Below, piece after piece: positions 3,367 to 62,959 of a DNA stretch of 64,000 nucleotides. Within the stretch, counting starts at the first letter, position 1. Every line of letters begins with the position of its first letter. Made by a program: the position numbers and the translations under genes. Under the pieces are notes generated by a model. It saw only the letters and a list, made by a program, of their open reading frames with translations, made no database searches and was not told the origin of the DNA. Origin of the DNA: Pyrrhoderma lamaoense (Eukaryota > Basidiomycota > Agaricomycetes > Hymenochaetales > Hymenochaetaceae); NCBI GenBank assembly GCA_002794735.1, contig NBAZ01000025.1:154848-218847 (forward strand). Reading direction: 5' to 3'.

Positions 3367-5054
3367 ATGATCTCTCTTCTGTCTCTGGGTGCTATCGCAT
3401 TTCTCACAGGTGTAAGGGGAGCTACAGACTGTACTGCAACTATCAACTCTTTGGACGATGTTTCCGCTGCAAAGAGCTGCACAACAGTCAATATCAATGG
3501 TTTCACAGTCCCTGCCGGTGAAGGCTTTACTCTATCTCTTGCCGATGGATCAACTGTCAACCTAAGTAAGTCTCCTGAGCTTTTTCAGTAGTATATATTG
3601 TCACTAGCGGTCAGTCCTCTAACCAATAAATTGAAATACTGTAGACGGAGACATTTTGTTTGGAAACAAGAGCTGGGCGGACCACTTTTTACCATCAGTA
3701 AGTAAATTGGAACGTTGATTTAAGTAATTAAAAAACTAACTTCTCAACCTAGGTGGAGATGACATCACATGTATGACAATCTCTAAATATAATAAAATAT
3801 CTAACCTGGCTCCTAGTTAACGGTAACGGTCACAAGTTTGACGGAGGAGGCCTTTCTATTGGGTATTGCATTTGGTCTGCTAATCACCTAGTAAATTAAC
3901 TAACTTCACGTAATTCAGGATGGTCAAGGCAGTAACGGGGGTGTGACAAAGCCTCGCCCTATGATGAAGTACGTAGTTGAATTTCAAGCCAGTTTACTCC
4001 ATGAATCCCTTTTGACTCGTTTTTGTTTGACAAAGGATCAAGATCTCGGGTACCTTTGAAAATGTCCACGTCGTGAACTCGCCTGCACAAACGTTCAGCG
4101 TCTCCAACCCTGGTCCACTAACAATCTCCGGAATCACTGTTGATAACTGTAAATTAGCAGATGTTATCTTTGATCCAGCTGTACACAATTGCTAATACCT
4201 CTTATAGCTCAAGGTGACTTACCAAATGCAAACAGCGATGGCAAAGCTGCAGGGCACAACACTGATGGCTTCGACTGTTCAACAACTGATCTTGTGAGTA
4301 AACCTATACCAGTCTATAAATATGACATCTTGTGTATCCGTATTTACATTTGTTTACCCCTACTCCTTAGACCATTAAAGACAGCACAATCAAGAACCAG
4401 GATGACTGTCTTGCTATCAACAAAGGTTCCAACATAGTTTTCACTGGTAATACTTGCTCAGGTGGACATGGCATTTCAATCGGCTCTATCTCCTCGGACG
4501 TCACTGTTGACGGTATCGTCATCAGTAACAATAATGTCATCAATAAGTACGGGTTTCCCATATTTATAGCTATAATGATGGTGATTAGAGAACTGACTCT
4601 TCGGTTTATTCAGTGACCAAGCTCTCCGCATCAAAATGAAATCTGATGCCACCGGTTCGACTGTTACAAATGTCACTTACAGCGTATGTTTTTATCATGA
4701 TTGAAACCTTTCTATTTGTGTCTATGATGTAAGTTGACTCAAAACGAAAAAAAAAAAAAAAAACGTTGTAATTATATAGGGGAACACAGGCTCGGGTCTC
4801 CGTCAATTCGGAGTGCTCATAGACCAGAGCTATCCCGACACTCTCGGCACTCCGGGCACTGGGGTCATTCTCTCTGACGTCAACTTTGTGGGTGAGACCA
4901 CGTCTCTAAGTGTCAACAGTGGGGCTATGCAAGTCGCAGTCAATTGTGGGAAGGGCGCATGTACGGGCACCTGGGATTGGAGTGCACTCAAGGTTTCAGG
5001 CGGGTCTAAAGGAGAGCTCGTAAACTTTAGCGGATCGAGGGTTTCTCAGTATAA
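3367..5054 (+). CDS. Secreted endopolygalacturonase (GH28), frame broken twice in this sequence
   Basis: The family hydrolyses alpha-1,4-galacturonan in pectin. The start at 3367 gives a signal peptide (MISLLSLGAIAFLTGVRG). Exons: 3367-3565, 3645-3701, 3753-3770 (18 nt), 3817-3862, 3919-3968, 4036-4148, 4208-4293, 4371-4546, 4614-4683 and 4780-5054. All GH28 catalytic motifs are present: HNTDGFD, NQDDC, GGHG and RIK. Two single bases appear to be missing. One is near 3850, where FDGGG must continue as PFYWDGQGSNGG. The other is near 5033, where VNFSG should continue to IEGFSV and stop at 5052-5054; as written, the frame runs on to 5244 with unrelated residues. Splice sites and active site are otherwise intact, so this is either a very recent pseudogene or, more likely, a sequence error (see findings). 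A TATA box precedes it. Confidence 0.9.
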
Positions 5055-5380
5055 TTGGCATAACTACCTGAATTTGAAGTTCAAAGGTTTCCATTTTGAT
5101 TATTCATTGCGGGTAGTCAGCTACCTTACTTTGGTAGCCACAAGTACTGCTTTCGGGTATTCCATACGTCTCAGACTTGTACTATATTATTGCAAACACA
5201 TAAATCATACACATCGTTTTTCTTTAACGACTACTAAAACATAAGCAAACATAGTATATAAAAGCAATCTATGCAAAGCAAGAGCCCGAAAGAAGTCGAT
5301 ACAGTTGAGCTAGAGATACAGAGCTGTGATACAGAGGATAATTCAAACTATTTTTCTCATCAGTGGAGTTATAATGAGTT
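5055..5380. other. Convergent 3' region
   Basis: This separates the stop of the polygalacturonase from the stop of the RAP1-like gene on the other strand. It should hold both 3' UTRs. No gene is seen. Confidence 0.4.
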
Positions 5381-61490: not shown

Positions 61491-62959
61491 TCAGAAAGCG
61501 AGGTCATGAGCGCCATGGAAAGCGCGTTTGTTGTGCGAGCGCTTCTTCGAAGACGAGGTGGAAGTGCTCGTGCTACGGCGACGACGACAAGTTGTAGCAG
61601 TGGTTGAGGTTGTTGATTCAGTAGTCGAGGCAGTACCTTCGCAGCGTTGATTGCCACTGGGAGGGAAGAAGTACAAGAAGACGGAGAAGAATTAGATAAA
61701 AAGGCAGTCGGAGAAGAGGTTAATAAAGAAGTGAAGATAGTTGATGAAGTCGTAGGAGAGACATTAGGGGAAGACGTGAGTGAGGACGTAGGATGAGTGA
61801 CAGGAGAAGAGATGAAAGTTGCAGGTGTAGAAGTAGAAAGCGTAAGAGAGATGGAAGTGGTGTCAGGAAGGGCTTCGCGAGTGGTGACACCAGAGTTATT
61901 CGTACCTGTTACAGCTGGGGAAGTCGTTATGACAGTACCCTGAGTGGTTGTTGAAGTATGCGTAGTAGTGGATTGAGTCGAAGTACTTGACGACGATGTC
62001 GATGAGGAAGAGGAAGAGGAGGAGGAAGAGGAAGAAGAGGAAGAAGAGTCATCGCTGCTCCCATCTGTAAGATAAGAAAGCGAGTCAGCTACAGCCTCAG
62101 TGAATCCCGTAGCTGTTCCTCCGCAGAACGTGATGAGCAGGTTGACATTGTCGGCCTGGCATGCACGTTGGACTTGGTTATCGTCCGACACAAAGAATGC
62201 AGTACTGCAGTTGGCATCTGCACCTAAAGAAAGTGAGGATGATAGTTAGAAATGACTGCCAGGTGGCACGTAGATTGTTGAAACCCCTACAGTTTGCACC
62301 AAGACCATCACAGCTTCCATCTCCTCCATAGTACTGGAAGGATGCTTCGACATTGTATTCGTGCCTAATTAGGATAAAGAACGTAAGAATCATCCTGCCT
62401 GGTTAATATATATGATAGAAGCATACGTCGGGATAAGAGAGAGATCGGCACTGAAGAAAGTGAGGTCAGTTTACTAGACTTTGGCAATTTATTACACCCA
62501 ATTTCCCACCTTGATCCACACCCAGCACACTGAGGGTTGTTCATGTTCAACTCAACTAGAGTACAATACTCTCCATTGAGGAGACAATCACCTGTCTGAA
62601 GATAGCTAAACTGATATGAGACGTTGATTAATTGTGTAGGTCTATTGATACGCACGCTATTGCTGACTCAATGGCTCCGCTATTAGTATAGTCATCTCCA
62701 GAAGAAACGACCTCTCCTCCGACAAGGAGTTGGGGCTATGGAACCGAGTAAGTTCTTATCTCTTGTAGACTATTCCTACATTTAATGCGTAACATACAGT
62801 GCCTTTTCCACATCTATTATAAAAACTATTAGAAAGAAGAACTTTAGACGGAGAGAATAAGGATACGTACTTATTTTCAAACTTGATTGTATGAGATTCT
62901 GCATGGACCTGAGTCACTGAGAACAGCGCAAGAGCGAGCGTCACAAACGTGAAGGCCAT
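61491..62959 (-). CDS. Secreted Cys-rich protein with long Ser/Thr tail (basidiomycete glycopeptide-like)
   Basis: Six exons on the minus strand: about 62959-62871, a 16-nt exon encoding CGKGT near 62808, then about 62750-62655, 62595-62510, 62460-62437 and 62395-62285, and a last exon 62223-61491. A signal peptide is clear (MAFTFVTLALALFSVTQVHA). The mature N-terminal domain has regularly spaced Cys: KFENKCGKGT, LQTGDCLLNGEYCTLVELNM, NNPQCAGCGS, GDGSCDGLGANC, DANCSTAFFVSD and RACQADNVNLLITFCGG. It matches secreted basidiomycete proteins of unknown role. A Ser/Thr-rich, probably O-glycosylated tail follows. It ends in a basic segment with Lys-Arg pairs (KKRSHNKRAFHGAHDLAF) and has no GPI signal. 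One base is missing at the GGG near 61660 (TSSLP to SGNQRCEGTAS); as written the frame runs on to 61349. Confidence 0.82.

What the first reader, a model, noticed from the sequence alone, without database searches (positions are those of the whole stretch)
3846..61662. About 20 single-base losses, always in the same direction, across most large genes
In conserved genes the homologous frame continues only if one base is added at: 3850, 5033, 5718 (RAP1), 12498 (CDC24), 20256, 19925, 19903 (THI6), 24513, 23450, 22742 (Ulp1-like), 28493, 30103 (CTF4), 32706 (TAPT1), 42823 (GATA), 53750, 55405, 55785 (Sec7) and 61660 (secreted protein). Splice donors look one base short at 31926, possibly 34058, and 57581. 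Every case lacks a base in the sense strand; none has an extra one. Most fall in GG/GGG/CCC/AAA/TT runs, and downstream splice phases fit once the base is added. CDC24 and CTF4 are essential or near-essential in yeasts, so genuine knock-out of all is implausible. Homopolymer under-calling in the assembly is the best explanation. Insertional RNA editing or widespread -1 frameshifting is the exotic alternative and would be remarkable.
Basis: partly seen in the sequence, partly recalled or inferred. Interest (0 to 1): 0.75.

Follow-up and report, generated by a model that had tools for sequence, protein, structure and literature searches.

The report
Missing bases are assembly errors
The genes look broken because single bases were dropped when this fungal genome was assembled; a second copy of part of the stretch in the same assembly has the base at most of the places that could be checked, so nothing unusual needs to be going on in the organism.

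Summary
The window is the end of contig C25 of a fungal assembly (30.65 Mb, 72 contigs; nearest relatives are Hymenochaetaceae). Most claimed frame breaks are in the sequence as written, and nearly all well-supported ones lack one base. They are consensus errors. Window 26,440-64,000 is present a second time at the end of contig C12. At 7 of the 8 claimed coding sites in that overlap C12 has exactly one more base within 30 nt (chance 5e-8). C12 has losses of its own where the window is intact. In 55,000-63,800 the copies differ by 5 substitutions but 13 single-base indels. A frameshift-aware spliced alignment calls losses at 8 places in four genes; a gain appears at one poorly conserved place where the closest homologue reads an intron. 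RPB2 (contig C1) and PRP8 (C13) show the same kind of break, so the problem is not local. Homopolymers are strongly enriched, but not every site lies in one. Editing or frameshifting is excluded where C12 has the base in its DNA. Two losses shared by both copies (55,784 and 57,541) lie in a stretch without substitutions and cannot be tested this way.

The parts
26440..64000 (.). Stretch present a second time at the end of contig C12 (opposite orientation); the internal test of the finding
   Evidence: 97.6% identity in the two longest of six pieces; 36,433 matches, 724 mismatches, 174 indels, one-base indels 40 short in window and 38 short in C12
12495..12498 (+). One-base loss in CDC24
   Evidence: aligner, 3 of 3 homologues; rest of the gene open through 6 introns
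24527..24583 (-).
   Evidence: aligner, 4 of 4 homologues each
22743..22749 (-). One-base loss in the same gene
   Evidence: aligner, 3 of 4 homologues; the fourth reads an intron
20240..20262 (-). Probable one-base loss in the thiamine phosphate synthase part of THI6
   Evidence: piece order and spacing against solved structures
28480..28480 (+). One-base loss in CTF4
   Evidence: C12 has one more base; longest open span 146 aa in window, 193 aa in C12; Mcl1_mid domain covers both sides of the break
30103..30103 (+). One-base loss in CTF4
   Evidence: C12 has one more base
32704..32704 (+).
   Evidence: C12 has one more base; one open span of 205 aa in C12 against 132 and 84 aa in the window
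42798..42820 (+). One-base loss in the AreA-like GATA gene
   Evidence: C12 has one more base at 42,798; aligner 2 of 5 homologues at 42,817-42,820
53720..53720 (+). One base fewer than C12 near the start of the Sec7-PH gene
   Evidence: open span 404 aa in window, 528 aa in C12; not called by the homologues
55376..55377 (+). One-base loss in Sec7-PH, window only
   Evidence: C12 has one more base; 4 of 4 homologues
55784..55784 (+). One-base loss in Sec7-PH shared by both copies
   Evidence: 4 of 4 homologues in both copies
57541..57541 (+).
   Evidence: 4 of 4 homologues in both copies; homologous sequence shown
61640..61640 (-).
   Evidence: longest open span is longer in the window (298 aa) than in C12 (251 aa), so this site is weakly supported

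Best explanation
The frame breaks are deletion-type consensus errors of an under-polished assembly, most likely one made from long reads. Shown: DNA assembled twice in the same assembly has the base in the other copy at most testable sites, the other copy has different losses of its own, and nearly all well-supported changes in conserved genes go in one direction. Inferred: the sequencing technology, and that sites without a second copy have the same cause. The organism's genes are then ordinary.
For: C12 has one more base within 30 nt at 7 of 8 claimed coding sites in the overlap, chance 5e-8. C12 alone is short near 42,435 (5 of 5 homologues) and at 55,824 and 58,296 (4 of 4 each). In 55,000-63,800 the copies differ by 5 substitutions and 13 one-base indels. 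The last 200 bases of the contig hold 5 one-base indels. Homopolymer enrichment. RPB2 on C1 and PRP8 on C13 have such breaks too. A study of nanopore drafts reports deletions linked to runs of two to eight bases and a few at non-repeated bases (PMC12007338, passages seen).
Against: At 55,784 and 57,541 both copies lack the base. One +1 is called by 3 of 5 GATA homologues, and THI6 19925/19903 could be one gain. Several losses are not in runs. 26,440-36,999 is lopsided: 9 short in the window, 1 in C12. No reads were available.
Confidence: 0.96

Rival explanations
1. Real mutations: the two nuclei or haplotypes each carry different broken alleles and complement one another.
For: The copies differ by 724 mismatches, so part of the overlap is truly two haplotypes, and each is broken at different places.
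Against: In 55,000-63,800 one-base indels outnumber substitutions 13 to 5; changes are nearly all losses; RPB2 on C1 and PRP8 on C13 are broken too, and no second copy of CDC24 or of 21,400-24,700 was found in the assembly.
Confidence: 0.03
2. Widespread -1 ribosomal frameshifting.
For: Nearly uniform direction in conserved genes.
Against: The base is in the DNA of the second copy at 7 of 8 testable sites; no common motif was evident by eye in the contexts (not tested formally).
Confidence: 0.005
3. Insertional RNA editing of nuclear transcripts.
For: Nearly uniform direction; no RNA data to exclude it at sites without a second copy.
Against: Same as for frameshifting; losses also differ between copies in stretches without substitutions. 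A paper search requiring three terms together found nothing, which shows little.
Confidence: 0.005

Closest known systems
Residual deletion errors in long-read consensus sequence
   Same: Single-base losses, enriched in short runs, breaking many genes; differ between two assembled copies of one locus
   Different: Nothing notable; the sequencing technology of this assembly is not known to me
Unmerged allelic contig ends (haplotigs; term recalled)
   Same: Two contigs end in the same 37.5 kb, partly diverged and partly nearly identical
   Different: Read depth was not available, so allelic origin is inferred
Programmed -1 frameshifting
   Same: Direction of shift
   Different: The base is present in the second copy's DNA at most testable sites; sites scattered over unrelated genes

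Membership tests
Consensus deletion errors | A second assembly of the same DNA has the base | tested here: met
   7 of 8 claimed coding sites in the overlap
Consensus deletion errors | Errors also hit the other copy, at other places | tested here: met
   C12-only losses near 42,435, 55,824 and 58,296
Consensus deletion errors | Enrichment in homopolymers | tested here: met
   15 of 25 and 20 of 23 isolated differences in runs of three or more, background 0.194
Consensus deletion errors | Not confined to one locus | tested here: met
   RPB2 on C1 and PRP8 on C13; two genes only
Consensus deletion errors | Raw reads carry the base | not testable with these tools
   No reads available
Programmed -1 frameshifting | Genomic DNA truly lacks the base | tested here: not met
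   Second copy has it at 7 of 8 testable coding sites; both copies lack it at 55,784 and 57,541
Insertional RNA editing | Base absent from DNA, present in RNA | tested here: not met
   DNA half fails at the same 7 of 8 sites; RNA not available
Real mutations in both haplotypes | Substitutions outnumber one-base indels as in ordinary polymorphism | tested here: not met
   5 substitutions against 13 one-base indels in 55,000-63,800; but 101 against 10 in 26,440-36,999 and 566 against 45 in 37,000-49,999

The most novel reading that the evidence does not exclude
The two Sec7-PH frame changes that both copies share (55,784 and 57,541) are real in the genome, and the cell reads through them by recoding or makes a shortened protein.
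Probability: 0.02. Interest if true: 0.4.

Novelty: not a real feature. Interest (0 to 1): 0.05.

Why it matters
Gene models and pseudogene counts taken from this assembly will be wrong at many places, and comparative work could report false loss of essential genes such as CDC24, CTF4 or RPB2. The overlap of C25 and C12 is a simple internal yardstick for the error rate.

Tried and rejected
Programmed frameshifting and editing: rejected where the second copy has the base in its DNA. Complementing broken alleles: rejected on direction, on the indel-to-substitution ratio in the nearly identical part, and on breaks in other contigs. DNA queries of 10-12 kb against the own genome were not scored because the answer was too long. 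Source species: paper searches (listings only) gave no assembly I could match; the family is inferred from the nearest homologues. Paper search on long-read errors: listing with abstract starts; from it only PMC12007338 was opened, and of that I saw passages. Search for insertional editing of nuclear genes in fungi: 0 papers hold all three terms. An elongation-factor family search and loci L025 and L026 were looked at only as an ORF list.

Full report
What the window is. It lies at C25:154848-218847, and contig C25 ends with it (218,847 bases). The assembly has 30,650,214 bases in 72 contigs. CDC24 is 75-79% identical to its five nearest hits, in Phellinidium, Coniferiporia, Phellopilus, Fomitiporia and Sanghuangporus, so the organism is a basidiomycete of or near the Hymenochaetaceae. 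The species was not identified.

A second copy. A search for the Sec7 domain returned two places with identical scores, one in the window and one on C12. Comparison shows window 26,440-64,000 again at the end of C12, in opposite orientation, in six pieces at 84-97.6% identity, 97.6% in the two longest. The pair alignment has 36,433 matches, 724 mismatches and 174 indels; of the one-base indels 40 are short in the window and 38 in C12. CDC24 and 21,400-24,700 have no second copy in the assembly.

The claimed sites against the second copy. Eight of the 18 claimed coding sites lie in the overlap. At seven C12 has one more base, 0 to 30 nt from the claimed position; chance 5e-8. At 55,785 the copies agree, and none of the three claimed splice donors differs. 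The longest open span through the site grows in C12 at 28,480 (146 to 193 aa), 32,704 (132 to 205), 53,720 (404 to 528) and 55,376 (153 to 242). It says little at 30,103 (156 to 166) and 42,798 (442 to 445, second span 63 to 215), and at 61,640 it is shorter in C12 (298 to 251).

C12 has its own losses. The aligner calls a loss in C12 at 42,418-42,430 with 5 of 5 homologues and none there in the window. In Sec7, C12 alone has calls matching its short positions 55,824 and 58,296, 4 of 4 homologues each (matched by offset). An open frame of 639 aa in the GATA gene is cut to 206 aa in C12, where three one-base losses fall; the aligner places introns inside that frame, so not all of it is coding, and it calls C12 losses there with only 2 of 5 (45,724) and 1 of 5 homologues (46,313, as two bases). 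At 58,296 the open span does not shorten in C12 (229 to 240 aa), and the C12 loss at 54,937 is not called by any of the 4 homologues.

Direction. I wrote a protein-to-genome aligner with introns and equal penalties for one lost or one gained base. In the window: CDC24, a loss at 12,495 (3 of 3); one homologue also gives a loss at 12,316, upstream of the start codon. Ulp1-like gene, losses at 24,583 and 24,527-24,530 (4 of 4 each) and 22,743-22,749 (3 of 4); a call at 24,744 (2 of 4) vanishes with a higher intron penalty, and calls of -1, -2, +1 and +2 made by single homologues come and go with that penalty. Sec7-PH, losses at 55,377, 55,784 and 57,541 (4 of 4 each). GATA, a loss at 42,817-42,820 (2 of 5) and at 45,430 (1 of 5), gains at 42,315 (1 of 5) and 45,836-45,851 (3 of 5; the closest homologue reads an intron there), and scattered calls in both directions with the more distant homologues. 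In a control with 20 planted losses and 16 planted gains the aligner called 13 losses, 11 one-base gains and 2 two-base gains (positions not checked), so it does not favour losses.

The donor at 57,581. Homologues show that the frame is lost at about 57,541 and that the donor at 57,582 is then in phase. Both copies lack that base and the one at 55,784. The copies have no substitution from 55,062 to 59,058, so shared reads or a systematic error would explain it; that is inference.

Regions. Substitutions and one-base indels: 26,440-36,999, 101 and 10 (9 of them short in the window); 37,000-49,999, 566 and 45; 50,000-54,999, 50 and 5; 55,000-63,800, 5 and 13; last 200 bases, 2 and 5. Indels outnumber substitutions only in the nearly identical part, which is what errors would give.

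Other contigs. RPB2 on C1 has a loss called by the aligner at position 4313 of the reverse-complemented locus; a second, which I read from the frames before 'LFIVED', was bridged by the aligner with an intron. S. pombe Rpb2 runs on at both places. PRP8 on C13 breaks between 'TYFPTWE' and 'GLFWEK', adjacent in solved Prp8; the aligner was not run on it. A PRP8 open frame of 1046 aa is unbroken, so the rate varies.

Context. Isolated one-base differences (no other difference within 12 nt: 25 of 40 and 23 of 38) lie in runs of three or more in 15 of 25 and 20 of 23 cases, against 19% of bases. A study of nanopore drafts reports the same association, with a small share at non-repeated bases (PMC12007338, passages).

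Verdict. There is no biological novelty.

Noticed in passing
window 26440-64000 and C12:648328-686524: Two contig ends hold the same 37.5 kb in opposite orientation, unmerged; likely allelic ends kept apart by divergence in 37-50 kb.
   Followed up: yes
window 37000-50000: Divergence between the two copies is concentrated here (566 of 724 mismatches), mostly around and between genes.
   Followed up: partly
window 42052-59424: The AreA-like GATA gene and the Sec7-PH gene are neighbours on one strand; in 34 of the 120 listed homologues of Sec7-PH one annotated protein carries both GATA and Sec7 domains. Could be a real fusion or read-through gene models.
   Followed up: no
window 3850-5244: A GH28 (pectinase-like) gene in pieces (PF00295); described only.
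   Followed up: no
window 63801-64000: Five one-base differences and two substitutions in the last 200 bases of the contig, as if coverage were low at the end.
   Followed up: partly
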